From: Alphaproteobacteria bacterium
GTDB taxonomy: Bacteria; Pseudomonadota; Alphaproteobacteria; Rs-D84
Assembly (NCBI GenBank): GCA_017937735.1
Contig: JAGBCZ010000033.1
Coordinates: forward strand, 1 to 27,354
Direction: 5' to 3'
Length of the DNA stretch: 27,354 nucleotides
In this document: one piece after another, positions 2,668 to 19,045 of the stretch
Numbering within the stretch: position 1 is the stretch's first letter
Layout: every line of letters starts with the position of its first letter
Program-made: the position numbers and the translations under genes
The notes under the pieces: model-generated
Database searches by the model: none
What the model was told of the DNA's origin: nothing
Seen by the model: the letters and a program-made list of their open reading frames with translations, nothing else

Positions 2668-4304
2668 TGTTCGAAGTCGGTAAGGATATTGTTAATCATG
2701 ATTCTTTGTCGGGTAATTGTGACGCTAATACAAAAATTAGGCTGAAAATAATTTATGTCGTTTTCTTGGCTTTGTTTGCAGCGTTTGCAATACGAACATT
2801 GGGGCTGTGTATCCAAGGAACAGATAGATCCAGATTGGGACGGGCAGATAATGAATGGCAGGTTCATCGTGCAGATATCGTTGATAGAAATGGCGATATA
2901 TTGGCAAAAAATATTGAATCTGGACATATTATTCTGCGTAATCGTGCCGTACAGGAAAAAGATAAAGAACTGGTCGCACAGACGATTCATAATGCAATGC
3001 CGTACGAATATTCATTGGCCCAAGCGTTGGAACTGGTAAATTCGCCAAAACGCTTTATGTATTTGAAAAAATATGCCAGTGATAATCAGCGCAAAATTAT
3101 TCAGCAAGCAAGATTAGAGGGTTTGGAAATTGAAAAAGTACAAACCAGAAAATATCCAAAACGCAGGCTGTTTTCACATGTTGTTGGTTTTACAGGTGCG
3201 GATGGAACCGGACTGGAAGGTGCAGAACGTACATACGATGATTATTTAAAAGAAAATAAAGATCCATTACGCCTGTCTGTTGATTCTAGAATTCAGTCAG
3301 TGTTTTACGAACAGTTGTCATTTGCAATGCAAAAATATCAAACACGTGCAGCGATGGGGATGCTGATGAATTCACGAACAGGTGAAATGATTGCAATGGT
3401 GTCATTACCTGATTTTGACCCAGAAAACCTGCGTATAGACCCTGTTGCAAACCGTTTGTTTAAACCGATGAGAAGTGTTTATGAATTGGGGTCAATATTT
3501 AAAATATTTAATACGGCGTTAGCATTGGAAAATGGCATTGACGCCAAGAAGGAATATTATGTTGCAAAGCCATTTCCTATTTATGATAAACACGGCAGGA
3601 TTGCAAAAAAAATTACAGATATTCGCAGTTTTAAGCCACCACGTCCAAGTATAAATGTCGAAGAAATTATGGTGCATTCTTGTAATGTTGGCAGTGCGCA
3701 AATTGCACTGGAATTGCCAGATGGTGCGCAAAAAGAATTCTTTGAACGGTTGCACATGGATAAGGCGCTAAACCTTGAATTTGGCCGTACAGAGAATACC
3801 TTGCCACAACGCAAATGGGGACCTGTTGAACGTGCGACTGTTGCGTATGGCCAAGGATATGCTGTGACGCCAATGCATTTGATGTTGGGGGTAAATGCGG
3901 TTACAAATGGTGGTATTTATATATATCCAACATTGCAAAAAAGAAGTGTCGGTGTTGTGCATGGTGAACGTGTCTTGGCAGATGAAATTTCTGCAAAATT
4001 AAGACCGATTATGTTGCGTGTTGCCGAAGAAACAAGTGGGAAAAAAGCGCGTGTTGCAGGTGTTAAAATTGCAGGTAAGACAGCAACTGCTGAAAAATAT
4101 ACAAATGGTAAAATTGATACAAAACGAAACGTTACTGCATTTGTTGGGGTGTTCCCTGCAGATGCGCCACAATACACGATATTAGTTGTTTTGGATGAAC
4201 CACAGGGAACCAAAGAATCTTGGGGGTGGCGTACTGCTGCGTGGAATGCTGTGCCCGTGACTGGGAAAATATTGGATAGTATACTGCCGTTGCTATTTGA
4301 ATAA
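2667..4304 (+). CDS. ftsI: Septal peptidoglycan transpeptidase FtsI (class B PBP, PBP3)
   Basis: A 545-residue class B penicillin-binding protein that cross-links septal peptidoglycan with FtsW. One transmembrane helix (about residues 27-47) anchors it in the inner membrane. The PBP dimerisation domain follows (IVDRNGDILA, 71-80, and the GLEGAERTYDDYL block near 182-194), then the transpeptidase domain. The active site shows GSIFK (nucleophile Ser276, Lys279) and SCN (338-340). The third motif reads KTA (471-473) instead of the almost universal KTG, in the context AGKTATAEK. The gene overlaps ftsL by TAATG. The rest of a dcw cluster (mraW upstream; murE, murF and others downstream) is missing: suf genes precede it and recJ follows. 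The FtsI call is preferred over other PBP2-type enzymes because of length and the ftsL neighbour. Confidence 0.92.
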   Translation: MFEVGKDIVNHDSLSGNCDANTKIRLKIIYVVFLALFAAFAIRTLGLCIQGTDRSRLGRADNEWQVHRADIVDRNGDILAKNIESGHIILRNRAVQEKDKELVAQTIHNAMPYEYSLAQALELVNSPKRFMYLKKYASDNQRKIIQQARLEGLEIEKVQTRKYPKRRLFSHVVGFTGADGTGLEGAERTYDDYLKENKDPLRLSVDSRIQSVFYEQLSFAMQKYQTRAAMGMLMNSRTGEMIAMVSLPDFDPENLRIDPVANRLFKPMRSVYELGSIFKIFNTALALENGIDAKKEYYVAKPFPIYDKHGRIAKKITDIRSFKPPRPSINVEEIMVHSCNVGSAQIALELPDGAQKEFFERLHMDKALNLEFGRTENTLPQRKWGPVERATVAYGQGYAVTPMHLMLGVNAVTNGGIYIYPTLQKRSVGVVHGERVLADEISAKLRPIMLRVAEETSGKKARVAGVKIAGKTATAEKYTNGKIDTKRNVTAFVGVFPADAPQYTILVVLDEPQGTKESWGWRTAAWNAVPVTGKILDSILPLLFE

Positions 4305-10076: not shown

Positions 10077-11300
10077 TTGAAAAAATTAATTTTTATTTTA
10101 TGTGTTGTTTTAATTGTGCTGCTGGTTGTGTGGTTGGTGCTGAAATTTAATGGTGTTGATAGAAAAGAAAAATATAACGCATCTGAACTGGATACCCCTA
10201 TTACAATTTATGATATTGACGATTTAGAAAAACGTGCCGCTGTAATTATCCCCCAAGGCGGATTTGACTATATTTATGGTGGTGCAGATACAGAAAAAAC
10301 AATGCATGATAATATCGAATGTTTTGATAAGGTAGATATTTATCCACGTGTTTTAACAGGTGTTGATATGCCTGATATTTCAACAAGTGTTTTGGGGATA
10401 GATATATCTTTGCCTGTTATTGTTGCGCCAGCAGCGGCTCATGGATTGGCGCATATTTCTGCCGAGGCAGGCAGTGCACGTGGCGCCGCAGCAAGCGGCA
10501 CCATTATGAGTGTTAGTAACTATGCCAGCAGTACACTTGCAGAGATTGCTGCTGCTGGAAATGGCGCACCGCAATGGTTCCAACTGTATTTGAGTAAGGA
10601 TGATGAATTCAATCGTCAAATTGTGCGTCAGGCAGAAGAACTGGGGTATCGGGCAATAATATTAACAGTTGATGCACCAATTGGCGGAAACAGAATACGA
10701 GATGCTAAAAATAACTTTAAATTTCCATTGGCGTTACCAAATGTAGCACAAAAAAGTGGCCCGACCAAAGGGCAGGGAATTAGTAAAATATTTGCCGCAG
10801 CACAAAATAAATTGACCCCATACGATGTTATTCGTGTGAAGGGGATGACTAATCTGCCGGTGATTGTAAAAGGAATTCAACACCCAGATGATGCTGAAAT
10901 TGCAATTGCGGCAGGTGCAGATGCAATTTGGGTTTCTAATCATGGGGGCAGACAATTGGATGGCTCGTTTTGTGCATTTGATGTTCTGTCTGATGTTGCA
11001 CGCCGTGTAAATAAACGTGTGCCAATTATATTTGATAGTGGAATTCGCCGTGGTACGCATATATTCAAGGCAATCGCCAGCGGCGCAGATGTTGTAGCGA
11101 TTGGGCGACCTGTTATTTACGGATTGGCATTGGGTGGATGGCGTGGTGTTGTGTCTGTATTTGATTATTTAAAAAATGATTTGCGCCGTGTGATGACACT
11201 GGCGGGCGCACAGACAATAGAAGATATAAAACATATAAAATTGCGCATACCACAAAGTGATTGTGATAAAGACTTGCATTTGACAGAAAAAAGTCTATAA
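10077..11300 (+). CDS. Membrane-anchored FMN-dependent alpha-hydroxy-acid oxidase, lactate-oxidase-like
   Basis: A 407-residue protein. An N-terminal hydrophobic helix (about 3-23) is followed by a complete FMN alpha-hydroxy-acid oxidase TIM barrel. Catalytic residues are recognisable: Tyr65 (GGFDYIYG), Tyr171 (WFQLYLSKDD), Arg206 (GGNRIRD), Lys265 (VKGIQHP), and His289/Arg292 (SNHGGRQLDG), plus the FMN-phosphate loop FDSGIRRG. The detailed wording (GGFxYI, AHGLAH, GIQHPxDA, NKRVPIxFDSGxRRG, GLALGGWxG) is closest to the Lox-type lactate oxidases of lactic-acid bacteria, which reduce O2 to H2O2, rather than to LldD or GlcD. The substrate is inferred. The start is TTG at 10077: AAGGAGA lies seven bases upstream and the overlapping ATG is out of frame. 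It stands alone, and its last bases hold the promoter of the following tRNA. Confidence 0.85.
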   Translation: MKKLIFILCVVLIVLLVVWLVLKFNGVDRKEKYNASELDTPITIYDIDDLEKRAAVIIPQGGFDYIYGGADTEKTMHDNIECFDKVDIYPRVLTGVDMPDISTSVLGIDISLPVIVAPAAAHGLAHISAEAGSARGAAASGTIMSVSNYASSTLAEIAAAGNGAPQWFQLYLSKDDEFNRQIVRQAEELGYRAIILTVDAPIGGNRIRDAKNNFKFPLALPNVAQKSGPTKGQGISKIFAAAQNKLTPYDVIRVKGMTNLPVIVKGIQHPDDAEIAIAAGADAIWVSNHGGRQLDGSFCAFDVLSDVARRVNKRVPIIFDSGIRRGTHIFKAIASGADVVAIGRPVIYGLALGGWRGVVSVFDYLKNDLRRVMTLAGAQTIEDIKHIKLRIPQSDCDKDLHLTEKSL

Positions 11301-11301
11301 T
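11274..11301 (+). promoter_or_regulatory. Promoter of the AUU-anticodon tRNA
   Basis: TTGCAT (11274-11279), a 16-base spacer and TATAAT (11296-11301), located in the last codons and stop of the oxidase gene, 30 bases before the mature tRNA 5' end. A second TTGACA at 11280 is too close (10 bases) to pair with this -10. Confidence 0.7.
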
Positions 11302-11331
11302 TACCCCCGTTCTGAAAAGAATTTCGGTTCT

Positions 11332-11407
11332 GGATGCGTAGCTCAGTTGGTAGAGCAACTGACTATTAATCAGTGGGTCCAGGGTTCGAGTCCCTGCGCG
11401 TCCACCA
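11332..11407 (+). tRNA. tRNA with anticodon ATT (Asn codon AAU) on a Lys-like body
   Basis: A full 76-base cloverleaf with encoded CCA. The acceptor GGATGCG/CGCGTCC is closed with one U-G pair, the D-arm is GCTC/GAGC, the anticodon stem is ACTGA/TCAGT, and the T-arm is CAGGG/CCCTG. The anticodon loop is CTATTAA, so position 34 is A (11365) and the anticodon is ATT, formally reading AAU. Bacterial tRNA-Asn normally has GTT, U1-A72 and discriminator G73. This molecule has G1-C72 and A73, and a D-arm/anticodon-arm wording (TAGCTCAGTTGGTAGAGCA...CTGACT.TTAATCAG) that matches bacterial tRNA-Lys(UUU). It looks like tRNA-Lys with U34 changed to A34. Identity is therefore uncertain; a sequencing error is possible. 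Confidence 0.85.
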
Positions 11408-11438
11408 AAATAAATAAACCGCCATGTGCGGTTTTTTG
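11398..11438 (+). repeat. Direct repeat, copy 1: tRNA 3' end plus terminator
   Basis: Seventeen identical bases (from GCGTCC through CCA to AAAATAAA) followed by a nearly identical terminator hairpin recur at 11584-11624. Copy 1 is the real 3' end of the tRNA. Confidence 0.85.
11415..11438 (+). terminator. Intrinsic terminator after the AUU tRNA
   Basis: Hairpin AACCGC-CATGT-GCGGTT (11417-11433) running into a T tract that ends at 11437. Confidence 0.8.
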
Positions 11439-11455
11439 TTTTGTTAGGACAAGCC

Positions 11456-11593
11456 GGACGAGAACCCAAAAAGGGTTCGGAACGCCAGTTGGCGAGAACG
11501 AAAGAAAAGAAGTTCGAGCCATACGTAGTGAAAGGGGCCCATTGTGGCAACGTGCCACAAATGGGAATATACAGTCCATTGCTGCGTCCACCA
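11456..11593 (+). ncRNA. Candidate structured RNA / palindromic element with a tRNA-like 3' CCA end
   Basis: About 138 bases between the two terminators with three well-formed hairpins: GAACCC-AAAAA-GGGTTC (11462-11478), CGCCA-GT-TGGCG (11483-11494), and a 12-pair stem CCCATT/GTGGCA-ACG-TGCCAC/AATGGG with one bulged A (11538-11565). GGACG (11456-11460) can pair with CGTCC just before the final ACCA (11585-11589), which would close the whole element in an acceptor-like stem. It carries no convincing coding frame. It could be a transcribed RNA processed like a tRNA, a decayed second tRNA invaded by a palindromic repeat, or a small non-autonomous element inserted at the tRNA end. No family is recognised. 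Confidence 0.45.
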
Positions 11594-11624
11594 AAATAAA
11601 AAAACCGCCACGTGCGGTTTTTTT
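11584..11624 (+). repeat. Direct repeat, copy 2: tRNA-like 3' end plus terminator
   Basis: Second copy of the 17-base GCGTCCACCA... block and terminator, 186 bases after copy 1. Only the last few acceptor bases and the CCA are shared with the tRNA; no T-arm precedes it. The rest of the gap to the next gene (11625-11734) holds only a TTGACA at 11688 and a TATAAA at 11708 (spacing 14, too short to be a confident promoter). Confidence 0.85.
11598..11624 (+). terminator. Duplicated intrinsic terminator
   Basis: Hairpin AAAACCGC-CACGT-GCGGTTTT (11601-11621) plus T tract, near-identical to the terminator at 11415-11438. The stem differs in length, and the loop differs by one base. Confidence 0.8.
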
Positions 11625-11734
11625 GTGCTTTTTTAAAGGGATTCATACCTATGTAAATATTGTTATAACATTGATAGAATTATAGCGTTGACATGAAACT
11701 TTGAATCTATAAAAAAAAATTAAAAGGAGAACAA

Positions 11735-17224: not shown

Positions 17225-18745
17225 TTATGATAATTTTGTACGTAACATTTCGTTTACAACACTTGGGTTTGCGGTGCCACCTGTTGCCTTCATAACATTA
17301 CCAACAAAGAATCCAAGCAGCCCTGTTTTCCCAGATTTATATTGTTCAACCTGGGCTGGGTTAGATGCAATTACGTCATCGATAATTTTTTCGATTGCGC
17401 CTGTATCTGTCATTTGTTTCATGCCAAATTTGTCGGCGATGCTACGCGGTGTGCCACATTCACCATCCAGCATTTTGATAAAGATTTCTTTGGCTTGTTT
17501 CCCGTTGATTGTATTTTCGCCCAACATATCAACCAATTCAGCCAAATCAGATGGTGTGATGATACGCATATCATCAACGATACCAGACTTCACATTTTTT
17601 TCGTCCCAGTTTTCTGGGTGTGCGAACAGTTCACTTATCATCCAGTTTGCAATTGATTTTGCATTTTGTGCTTTGCCGTTTACGGCTGCATCGAACCAAT
17701 GTGAAATATCTGTTGATTCTGTTAAACGTGCTGCATCATATTCAGACAGCCCGAATTCTGTCGTATAGCGTGCGCGTGTCGCAGATGGCAGTTCTGGCAT
17801 TGTGCCGCGTATGCGTTCAATTTGTTCGTCTGTAATTTCGATTGGTAACAGGTCTGGATCAGGAAAATAACGATAATCCAGTGCATCTTCTTTGGAACGC
17901 ATAACAGATGTTGTACCGTCACCTTGGTTATAACGCATTGTGTCTTGTGAAACAGTGCCACCGTTTTCATAGATTTCAATTTGACGGCGTGCCTCGTATT
18001 CAATGGCAGACTTAATAAATTTGAACGATACCATATTTTTTGTTTCTGTTCTGGTGCGGAATTTTGTGTCGCCCACAGGCCGTACAGATACATTTACGTC
18101 TGCACGCATTGAACCTTCTTCCATGTTTGCACGGGATACGCCCAATGCACGTGCGATTTCACGAATTTCGCGCAGATATCGTTCTGCTTCGTCAGGGGAT
18201 GAAATGTATGAGTTGTTTTCTGGATTTTTTGTATCCAAGAACGTTACGATTTCTAATAATGCAACGCCTGTACGGTTATAGTCAGCAAAGGATTTTGTTG
18301 GGTGTACATCATGTTTTAATTTGCCTGCATCTTGTTCCAAGTGTGCACGTTCAATAAATATTTTCTTGGGATTGCCATCATCGCCCAAAATTTCAATCCA
18401 GCCACGACCAACCACAGGTGCTTCGTCTGCGGGCTGTGAAATCTGATACCCCTGGGGCAGGTCAGGGTAAAAATACTGTTTACGTGCAAAACGGCTGTGG
18501 CGGGATATTTCGGCGTTAATACCCAGACCAAATTTAATTGCCTGTTCAACACAGTATTTGTTTAATACAGGTAACATGCCAGGCATCGCAACGTCAACCA
18601 TTGAAACCTGGGTGTTAGGTGCAACTGTTGGGTTATAGTCTGCAGATGCGCCACTGAATAATTTTGATTCAGATAACACTTCGATGTGTGTTTCCAGTCC
18701 GATTACCAATTCCCAATCACACGTTTTGCCTTTTATTGTAAACAT
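17225..18745 (-). CDS. gatB: Aspartyl/glutamyl-tRNA(Asn/Gln) amidotransferase subunit B
   Basis: A 506-residue subunit that binds mischarged Glu-tRNA(Gln) and/or Asp-tRNA(Asn) and carries out the kinase/transamidation step. The family opening WELVIGLETHIEVLSESKLFSGAS is at residues 11-34, followed by PGMLPVLN, the RKQYFYPDLPQGYQISQ block (88-104), the Glu/His-rich ERAHLEQDAGK motif, RTETKNMVSFKFI and DYRYFPDPDLLP. The C-terminal GatB/YqeY tail ends in NPSVVNEMLRTKLS. It is separated from gatA by 318 bases that hold a plus-strand tRNA-Phe, although both genes are on the minus strand. A GGGAAAAAG site precedes the ATG. Confidence 0.95.
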   Translation of the reverse strand: MFTIKGKTCDWELVIGLETHIEVLSESKLFSGASADYNPTVAPNTQVSMVDVAMPGMLPVLNKYCVEQAIKFGLGINAEISRHSRFARKQYFYPDLPQGYQISQPADEAPVVGRGWIEILGDDGNPKKIFIERAHLEQDAGKLKHDVHPTKSFADYNRTGVALLEIVTFLDTKNPENNSYISSPDEAERYLREIREIARALGVSRANMEEGSMRADVNVSVRPVGDTKFRTRTETKNMVSFKFIKSAIEYEARRQIEIYENGGTVSQDTMRYNQGDGTTSVMRSKEDALDYRYFPDPDLLPIEITDEQIERIRGTMPELPSATRARYTTEFGLSEYDAARLTESTDISHWFDAAVNGKAQNAKSIANWMISELFAHPENWDEKNVKSGIVDDMRIITPSDLAELVDMLGENTINGKQAKEIFIKMLDGECGTPRSIADKFGMKQMTDTGAIEKIIDDVIASNPAQVEQYKSGKTGLLGFFVGNVMKATGGTANPSVVNEMLRTKLS

Positions 18746-18800: not shown

Positions 18801-18876
18801 GGCTAGGTAGCTCAGTTGGTAGAGCAAGGGACTGAAAATCCCTGTGTCGGCGGTTCGATTCCGTCCCTAGCCACCA
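18801..18876 (+). tRNA. tRNA-Phe (GAA)
   Basis: A full 76-base cloverleaf with encoded CCA. Acceptor GGCTAGG/CCTAGCC, D-arm GCTC/GAGC, anticodon stem AGGGA/TCCCT with loop CTGAAAA (anticodon GAA at 18834-18836), T-arm GGCGG/CCGTC with one G-U pair, and A73. It lies on the opposite strand between gatA and gatB. Confidence 0.97.
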
Positions 18877-18928
18877 TCATCTCCTTTCTGTCGGCCACTG
18901 CGGTCGATTTTTTATTTACAAAAGAGAT
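18846..18928 (+). repeat. Direct repeat, copy 1: tRNA-Phe 3' half plus terminator
   Basis: This 83-base segment (T-arm, acceptor 3' strand, CCA and terminator region) recurs at 18962-19045. The T-arm (20 bases) and the ~52 bases after CCA are identical apart from one base; only the acceptor strand differs. Confidence 0.9.
18890..18914 (+). terminator. Intrinsic terminator after tRNA-Phe
   Basis: Stem TCGGCC-ACTGC-GGTCGA (18891-18907, one G-U pair) followed by six T. Confidence 0.78.
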
Positions 18929-18940
18929 AATTTTAGAACA

Positions 18941-18993
18941 ATTCACCTTAAAATCCTTATGGTCGGCGGTTCGATTCCGTCTGCTCTCCACCA
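18941..18993 (+). pseudogene. Decayed tRNA remnant (3' half) with CCA end
   Basis: The segment contains an anticodon-loop-like CTTAAAA (TAA at the anticodon place, as in tRNA-Leu(UAA)), then a perfect copy of the tRNA-Phe T-arm, then an unrelated acceptor strand TGCTCTCC with one extra base, and ACCA. No D-arm and no good 5' acceptor strand are found upstream; AGAGAT at 18922 gives at most four pairs. It cannot fold as a normal tRNA. Confidence 0.55.
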
Positions 18994-19045
18994 TCATCTC
19001 CTTTCTGTCGGCCACAGCGGTCGATTTTTTATTTACAAAAGAGAT
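18962..19045 (+). repeat. Direct repeat, copy 2: decayed tRNA 3' half plus terminator
   Basis: Second copy of the tRNA-Phe 3'-half/terminator unit, 116 bases after copy 1, one base longer. The spacer 18929-18961 is unrelated to the upstream part of tRNA-Phe except around the anticodon loop. Confidence 0.88.
19007..19031 (+). terminator. Duplicated intrinsic terminator
   Basis: Stem TCGGCC-ACAGC-GGTCGA (19008-19024) plus six T, differing by one loop base from the tRNA-Phe terminator. It has no T tract on the minus strand, so gatA transcription toward gatB need not stop here. Confidence 0.78.

What the first reader, a model, noticed from the sequence alone, without database searches (positions are those of the whole stretch)
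11332..11407. tRNA with anticodon AUU (A34) on a tRNA-Lys-like body
Seen: a perfect 76-base tRNA whose anticodon loop is CTATTAA, giving ATT. Known: bacterial tRNA-Asn uses GUU with discriminator G73; A34 in bacteria is almost limited to tRNA-Arg(ACG), modified to inosine by TadA. This tRNA's G1-C72, A73, D-arm and anticodon-arm match tRNA-Lys(UUU). Bacterial LysRS relies mainly on U35, U36 and A73, all kept here. Inference: it may be a one-base tRNA-Lys variant that LysRS still charges and that reads AAU, or AAU/AAC/AAA if A34 is deaminated, giving possible Asn-to-Lys misreading. In this window AAT encodes the invariant Asn of the FtsI SxN motif (3684-3686), so wholesale reassignment is not supported. 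A tRNA-derived regulatory role or an assembly error are alternatives.
Basis: partly seen in the sequence, partly recalled or inferred. Interest (0 to 1): 0.75.

Follow-up and report, generated by a model that had tools for sequence, protein, structure and literature searches.

The report
Lysine tRNA with asparagine anticodon
A spare lysine tRNA gene of an uncultured bacterium carries one changed letter that turns its reading head toward an asparagine codon; it is probably a private mutation or an assembly slip, but right behind it sits a copy of what looks like an undescribed family of folded RNA elements that borrow the tail of the tRNA gene they follow.

Summary
The tRNA is real: 11332-11407 (+), intact cloverleaf, anticodon ATT, A73. 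Relatives show its origin. The window belongs to a family of small (0.5-1.1 Mb) unnamed alphaproteobacterial genomes, 183 held. The orthologous gene is tRNA-Lys(CTT) in 30 of 30 and 25 of 25 loci read (overlapping sets); in 18 and 23 of these the other 75 bases are identical. The ATT form is in 0 of 183 genomes. So it is C34A of the spare tRNA-Lys(CUU), not of tRNA-Lys(UUU), which the relatives checked keep as a separate gene; the change is survivable. Codons speak against reassignment: AAT stands at 97 of 155 invariant Asn columns and 0 of 185 invariant Lys columns. Best reading: a private, recent variant that, if real, is charged with Lys and misreads a little AAU. An assembly error cannot be excluded without reads.

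The more novel thing lies next door. At 11446-11593 is one copy of a covarying structured RNA without an Rfam family; its model matches 151 of 183 family genomes. Of 30 high-scoring copies fetched, 27 lie directly behind tRNA genes, nine kinds in all, mostly ending in a copy of that tRNA's own 3' tail.

The parts
11296..11301 (+). Promoter -10 box TATAAT of the tRNA gene (TTGCAT upstream as inferred -35)
   Evidence: Of the 21 relatives' loci printed, TATAAT is present in 21 and TTGCAT in 17; G508 (L051) has the same core. The mechanical consensus scan called no promoter here, so this is my reading.
11332..11407 (+). tRNA-Lys(CUU) orthologue with C34A, anticodon AUU
   Evidence: ARAGORN, Rfam, relatives
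11365..11365 (+). The variant base: position 34, A here, C in every relative's locus read
11416..11434 (+). Intrinsic terminator of the tRNA, first copy
   Evidence: direct repeat 11398-11437
11446..11593 (+). Structured RNA element ending in a tRNA-like tail GTCCACCA
   Evidence: Model R1 141.8 bits (the window copy is one of the 12 sequences R1 was built from); fold z -5.2; covariation
11596..11626 (+). Second copy of the terminator
   Evidence: direct repeat 11584-11623, 95%
10077..11300 (+). FMN-dependent alpha-hydroxy-acid dehydrogenase, syntenic upstream neighbour
   Evidence: PF01070; in 15 family loci one match runs from this gene through the tRNA

Best explanation
The gene is the orthologue of the family's tRNA-Lys(CUU) in which C34 has become A, private to this strain or contig. 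Shown: origin, synteny, intact cloverleaf, a promoter core like that of relatives, absence of the variant pattern in the 183 family genomes, normal use of AAT for Asn. Inferred: tRNA-Lys(UUU), a separate gene in the relatives checked, takes over AAG, so the change is not lethal; class II LysRS still charges the tRNA through U35, U36 and A73; A34 stays unmodified and the tRNA competes with tRNA-Asn(GUU) for AAU, putting Lys at a small fraction of AAU codons. It is young or weak, since codon usage shows no response.
For: Relatives: 30 of 30 loci fetched carry CTT (18 differ from the window at position 34 only); of 30 loci fetched, the 25 that hold the tRNA all carry CTT (23 differ at position 34 only). 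ATT pattern in 0 of 183 family genomes, CTT pattern in 165 of 183. Nearest relative G508 has both Lys(TTT) and Lys(CTT); G433, with 42 tRNAs called, has one Lys(TTT), one Lys(CTT), one Asn(GTT). LysRS of G433 and G469 passes the bacterial class II models NF001756 and TIGR00499. Identity literature: U35, U36, A73 for Lys, all three anticodon bases contribute (PMC9976931, passages). A34 with AUU read AAU only (PMC11066159). Codons: AAT at 97 of 155 invariant Asn columns, 0 of 185 invariant Lys columns; AAT share 97/152 against 975/1507 pooled in ten relatives, Fisher p 0.86.
Against: No reads, no second genome of the species and no own assembly were available, so the base itself is unverified. 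The window's own tRNA-Lys(UUU) and LysRS were not seen. A hit of LysRS size appears in 21 of 23 relatives but not in G508 or G429; G508 is an incomplete assembly with 27 tRNA matches. AAG share at invariant Lys columns (36/184) is below the ten-relative pool (450/1826) but not significantly (p 0.15), so loss of the AAG reader leaves no clear trace. Base 34 also contributes to Lys charging, so A34 may weaken it.
Confidence: 0.55

Rival explanations
1. Sequencing or assembly error: the true base at 11365 is C and the gene is an ordinary tRNA-Lys(CUU).
For: The base is unique to this record: 0 of 183 family genomes, and none of the 8 loci found in genome contigs is of this family by its title. 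A parallel singleton, L006 in a Bacillota MAG, also sits in a lineage where 19 of 19 fetched relatives differ (TTT there), which fits a low rate of errors or private mutations across assemblies. Such anomalies are also what a reader picks out (inference).
Against: The 29 genes used are open frames and 28 of them found a relative, so the consensus is not obviously poor. The change falls in the one Lys isoacceptor that can be spared.
Confidence: 0.33
2. A fixed, functional mistranslating tRNA: the species puts Lys at AAU on purpose or at a selected rate, comparable to the Streptomyces tRNA-ProX family.
For: Body and anticodon disagree, A34 present, promoter core kept. tRNA-ProN of Streptomyces and Kitasatospora has the same AUU anticodon (PMC11415595, section 17 read).
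Against: No relative shares it; no aminoacyl-tRNA synthetase among 29 window proteins scanned, 8 of which had no Pfam match; no depletion of AAT at conserved Asn sites; lacks A33, G21 and A15-A48 of tRNA-ProX.
Confidence: 0.05
3. The tRNA no longer works in decoding; it is a dying spare gene.
For: The isoacceptor is dispensable where tRNA-Lys(UUU) exists (inference).
Against: 75 of 76 bases match the family form and the promoter core is kept; a decaying tRNA would be expected to lose stem pairs as well (general knowledge).
Confidence: 0.07

Closest known systems
tRNA-Lys(CUU) of the same alphaproteobacterial family
   Same: Locus, promoter core, 75 of 76 bases in the closest cases
   Different: C34 replaced by A, so the anticodon pairs with AAU rather than AAG
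tRNA-ProX (tRNA-ProN, anticodon AUU) of Streptomyces and Kitasatospora
   Same: Bacterial tRNA with A34 and an Asn anticodon on a body of another amino acid (PMC11415595, section 17)
   Different: Lys body; U33, A21 and G15/C48 are ordinary; no synthetase among the 29 window proteins scanned; not found in relatives
Bacterial A34 tRNAs modified by TadA (tRNA-Arg ACG, tRNA-Leu AAG)
   Same: A34
   Different: In E. coli an orthogonal AUU tRNA behaved as unmodified A34, reading AAU only (PMC11066159, passages)
Integrative elements with attachment sites in tRNA genes (compared with the neighbouring element; this kind is recalled)
   Same: Direct repeat of the tRNA 3' end, starting in the T-loop, with the intact tRNA kept
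   Different: About 148 bp, a folded RNA with compensatory changes; no integrase among the 29 window proteins scanned
tmRNA and other RNAs with tRNA-like ends (compared with the neighbouring element)
   Same: Predicted basal helix closed on a tail that ends in CCA
   Different: The tmRNA hits lie on, or (permuted model, 13.6 bits) start on, the tail of the tRNA itself; two other copies give no tmRNA hit

Membership tests
tRNA-Lys | Orthology to a tRNA-Lys gene | tested here: met
   CTT gene in synteny, 75/76 identity in the closest cases
tRNA-Lys | Lys determinants U35, U36, A73 | tested here: met
   Sequence; determinants from PMC9976931 passages
tRNA-Lys | Anticodon that pairs with AAA or AAG | tested here: not met
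   Anticodon ATT
tRNA-Lys | Charging by LysRS | not testable with these tools
   Only the presence of class II LysRS in two relatives was shown
tRNA-Asn | GUU anticodon and G73 | tested here: not met
   AUU and A73; relative G433 keeps a separate tRNA-Asn(GTT)
Mistranslating tRNA (tRNA-ProX type) | Anticodon of another amino acid than the body, with A34 | tested here: met
   definition from PMC11415595
Mistranslating tRNA (tRNA-ProX type) | A33, A15-A48, G21 | tested here: not met
   T33, G15, A21, C48
Mistranslating tRNA (tRNA-ProX type) | Dedicated synthetase encoded with it | tested here: not met
   Within the window only: 29 proteins scanned with Pfam, none an aminoacyl-tRNA synthetase, 8 without any match; the stretch beyond 26278 was not scanned
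Codon reassignment AAU to Lys | AAT at conserved Lys sites | tested here: not met
   0 of 185 invariant Lys columns; AAT at 97 of 155 invariant Asn columns
Inosine-34 tRNA | A34 deaminated by TadA | not testable with these tools
   Literature on the same anticodon in E. coli speaks against it
Rfam families (for the element 11446-11593) | Match at the gathering score | tested here: not met
   None at gathering score. Below it the window copy overlaps CsrC at 21.1 bits (gathering 61, E 1.3e-4) and Pab19 at 23.6; CsrC does not recur in two other copies, Pab19 recurs in one at 19.1 bits
Integrative element in a tRNA gene (for the element) | Integrase gene with it | tested here: inconclusive
   About 148 bp; no integrase among 29 window proteins scanned; one elsewhere in the genome was not sought

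The most novel reading that the evidence does not exclude
The locus holds one copy of an undescribed, multi-copy family of tRNA-coupled structured RNA elements. In the copies examined each sits 35-54 nt behind a tRNA gene, has a conserved covarying body, and closes its basal helix on a copied 3' tail of that very tRNA; bodies have moved between tRNA genes of different kinds within this alphaproteobacterial family. It would be a mobile RNA element, or a regulatory tRNA mimic, that takes its acceptor end from its neighbour.
Probability: 0.65. Interest if true: 0.77.

Novelty: new variant of a known kind. Interest (0 to 1): 0.58.

Why it matters
If the base is real, this is a natural Asn-to-Lys missense tRNA made by one step from a spare isoacceptor, and it shows why such steps are open: where tRNA-Lys(UUU) can read AAG, tRNA-Lys(CUU) is free to mutate. 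It would let the cost of AAU misreading in a wild bacterium be measured. The neighbour matters more: a folded RNA whose model matches 151 of 183 genomes of one bacterial family, seen behind tRNA genes of nine kinds and mostly matched to each one's own tail, bears on how RNA elements spread and on what may act on tRNA ends besides tRNAs.

Tried and rejected
tRNA-Asn with a G34A change: rejected, since A73, the body and synteny are Lys. Variant of tRNA-Lys(UUU): rejected, relatives carry CTT here; G433, G508 and G469 have TTT elsewhere. Reassignment of AAU: rejected. Class I LysRS: PF01921 gave only partial stretches in 22 of 23 genomes, 4 over the cut-off, mostly inside frames of 477-512 aa that I take to be other synthetases (not identified further); the two LysRS tested are class II. 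A wider family of A34 Lys/Asn tRNAs: the genome-contig scan gave 8 loci, and ARAGORN calls an ATT tRNA at 4 of them (L002, L005, L006, L008); the viral scan gave 4, one with an ATT tRNA (L012). Only L006 was followed: also a singleton (19 of 19 fetched relatives TTT). Element on phages or plasmids: no match; the single viral pattern hit (L188) does not match the RNA model and has no tRNA, so I take it as chance. Element outside the family: one match of 10.1 bits (E 0.94), at a tRNA-Met, in 220 kb of one out-of-family genome, G375; this is only part of one genome. Literature: searches; I saw no tRNA-Lys(AUU) and no such element in their listings, which is not proof that none is in print. Searches were those aimed at the element. 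A control that does not favour the element's structure: the number of further pair types (37) is within the shuffles (mean 35.2, 127 of 500 as high).

Full report
WHAT IS THERE. The tRNA at 11332-11407 (+) is real. ARAGORN gives anticodon ATT and Rfam RF00005 scores 72.2 bits against a cut-off of 29. Read directly it has U33, A34-U35-U36, A73 and an encoded CCA. No whole genome is held for the window, so the base could not be checked against its own assembly.

PLACING THE WINDOW. GatB from the window (17228-18745) was searched in 385 genomes of the class of a Parvibaculum genome. The three best, G364, G192 and G072, are 84-86% identical and lie in 0.9 Mb genomes; the next best is 56%. Three of the 120 listed relatives of the upstream dehydrogenase carry the source name Alphaproteobacteria bacterium.

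THE PARENT IS tRNA-Lys(CUU). Of 113 family genomes, 107 have a match to the tRNA. All 30 fetched loci carry CTT; 18 are identical to the window in the other 75 bases. A longer query (10077-11660) found nearest relative G508 at 84% nucleotide identity, and in 15 loci one match runs from the dehydrogenase through the tRNA. Of the 30 loci fetched then, 25 hold the tRNA, and all 25 carry CTT, 23 with position 34 as the only difference; the two sets overlap. As exact patterns, the ATT form is in 0 of 183 genomes and the CTT form in 165 of 183; the 18 without it may be incomplete or differ in the arms, which I did not check. The change is therefore C34A in tRNA-Lys(CUU). In the 21 relatives' loci printed, TATAAT lies upstream in 21 and TTGCAT in 17; G508 has the window's core. 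The mechanical promoter scan found none, so the promoter is my reading.

WHY IT COULD BE SURVIVED. Relative G433 has 42 tRNAs called in the stretches fetched, with one Lys(TTT), one Lys(CTT) and one Asn(GTT); nearest relative G508 has Lys(TTT) and Lys(CTT). tRNA-Lys(UUU) normally reads AAG too (established wobble rule, recalled), so the CUU gene is spare. Had the UUU gene been hit, AAA would lose its reader. That the window's own genome has a UUU gene is inferred.

CHARGING AND READING. A hit of LysRS size is present in 21 of 23 relatives, not in G508 or G429; the two tested, of G433 and G469, pass bacterial class II models. Class I gave only partial stretches. The identity review names U35, U36 and A73 for Lys and adds that all three anticodon bases contribute (PMC9976931, passages); A34 might therefore weaken charging. 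The same review says Asn identity was transferred into a tRNA-Lys by the Asn anticodon plus G73; this tRNA has neither. On reading, an orthogonal tRNA with AUU in E. coli reassigned 7.2% of AAU, with AAC, AAA and AAG below detection; inosine was seen in three of 15 A34 tRNAs and in none of the eight evaluated from the group to which AUU belongs (PMC11066159, abstract and passages).

CODON TEST. Twenty-nine window genes were compared with ten relatives over syntenic stretches plus pieces of G508; 28 found a relative, three of them at low identity. At 155 columns where at least seven relatives are aligned and all are Asn, the window has AAT 97 times, AAC 55 times and another codon three times. 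At 185 invariant Lys columns it has AAA 147, AAG 35, other 3, and AAT never. Without G508, AAT share at invariant Asn is 97/152 against 975/1507 pooled (Fisher p 0.86), and AAG share at invariant Lys is 36/184 against 450/1826 (p 0.15); columns within a genome and related genomes are not independent. So AAU still means Asn, and no clear codon shift has followed the change: it is young, weak or not real.

ERROR OR MUTATION. Nothing here decides between them. A scan of genome contigs (84,980 species) for Lys or Asn bodies with ACTATTAA found 8 loci, of which ARAGORN calls an ATT tRNA at 4. One, L006 in a Bacillota MAG, also has a Lys body; 19 of 19 fetched relatives have TTT there. Such forms are very rare, as both private mutations and errors would be. 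I give a real private variant 0.55 and an error 0.33.

COMPARISON. The closest known kind is the mistranslating tRNA. Streptomyces tRNA-ProN has the same AUU anticodon on a Pro body and causes Pro at Asn codons when expressed in E. coli (PMC11415595, section 17 read). The present gene shares the mismatch and A34 but lacks A33, G21 and A15-A48, has no synthetase among the 29 window proteins scanned (8 of them without any Pfam match), and is not found in relatives. It may work like that kind; it is not a member of that family.

THE NEIGHBOUR. A 40-nt direct repeat of tRNA tail plus terminator (11398-11437 and 11584-11623) led to the stretch between them. The RNA 11446-11593 folds at -54.5 kcal/mol, z -5.2, none of 200 shuffles as low. 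Twelve copies from ten genomes (the window and nine others, G433 three times) gave a consensus with 31 pairs, 11 of them with compensatory changes. The covariance model R1 from these (146 positions, tail included) matches 151 of 183 family genomes at E <= 0.001, 1 to 11 matches each. The weaker of these were not examined, and a shared tRNA tail could lift some. On 33 distinct copies 95.6% of cells pair; 17 of 31 pairs show changes on both sides; the covariation score is 0.330 against 0.137 shuffled and at most 0.064 when slid; the count of further pair types does not exceed the shuffles. That alignment was fitted to the model, which leans towards the structure.

Of 30 fetched copies (high-scoring ones, one per genome, 8 of them among the model's own 12), 27 have a tRNA gene directly upstream on the same strand: Lys CTT, Lys TTT, Gly CCC, Glu TTC, His GTG, Ser GGA, Arg TCT, Pro GGG, Leu CAA; among the 22 not used for the model it is 19. 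Of the other three, two show a tRNA 3' tail just upstream and one (L184) is unclear. With the window there are 28 tRNA-element pairs. In 24 of 28 the element's last 19 nt equal the last 19 nt of that tRNA, from A58 to CCA (19 of 19 among pairs not used for the model); the mean match to other kinds of tRNA is about 11 of 20. The four exceptions, all Lys CTT or ATT and including the window, keep only the outer GTCCACCA. The 5' strand of the elements pairs better with their own tails than with tails of other kinds (mean -15.3 against -10.7 kcal/mol over 31 copies; 4 of 20000 permutations of ten representatives, three of them Lys, as good); 4 of 31 (L158, L161, L180, L186) pair worse than their mean for other kinds. 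Nearest relative G508 has no element at this locus, though it has six model matches elsewhere; L159 holds two copies in tandem. In a quick tree without support tests many bodies group by tRNA kind, but some kinds interleave, such as Lys TTT of G428 among Lys CTT copies, which suggests movement between tRNA genes as well as descent. No Rfam family reaches its gathering score; the window copy has a sub-threshold overlap with CsrC (21.1 bits, gathering 61) that does not recur in two other copies. No phage or plasmid record matches. What the element does is open: a mobile element that takes its tail from its target, or an RNA that mimics the acceptor end of its tRNA. I lean to the first.

VERDICT. 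The finding as given is confirmed and corrected, and by itself of modest interest (about 0.35). The locus is worth more because of the element, hence 0.58 overall.

Noticed in passing
window 11446-11593 (+); L158-L187; model R1: Multi-copy structured RNA element behind tRNA genes, mostly ending in a copy of the upstream tRNA's own 3' tail; in the window a copy of the terminator follows. Model matches 151 of 183 family genomes, no Rfam family.
   Followed up: yes
window 18801-19045 (+): Behind tRNA-Phe lies another tandem unit: a partial tRNA 3' half (GTCGGCGGTTCGATTCCGTC...CCACCA) and a second copy of the terminator. The tRNA-Phe loci of G508 and G433 lack it. Model R1 does not match it.
   Followed up: partly
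L105:631-715 (G433), L190:181-265 (G469): tRNA-Leu with anticodon AAG (A34) in two family genomes, besides tRNA-Arg(ACG) in G433; the family may use an extended set of inosine tRNAs.
   Followed up: partly
L006:2056-2131 (-), Bacillota MAG: A second, independent Lys-body tRNA with anticodon ATT; 19 of 19 fetched relatives have TTT.
   Followed up: yes
L002, L005, L008 (genome contigs) and L012 (viral contig): Other tRNAs that ARAGORN calls with anticodon ATT; not examined further.
   Followed up: no
23 family genomes; L104 (G433), L116 (G515): G433 has a bacterial AspRS and G515 an archaeal-type aspartate-tRNA(Asn) ligase; of the four class II synthetases tested none was AsnRS, and gatA-like amidase, gatB and gatC lie in the window, so Asn-tRNA is probably made by transamidation.
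   Followed up: partly
G499, G562, G401: Two or three copies of the tRNA-Lys(CTT) pattern in one genome, against one in the other genomes that have it.
   Followed up: no
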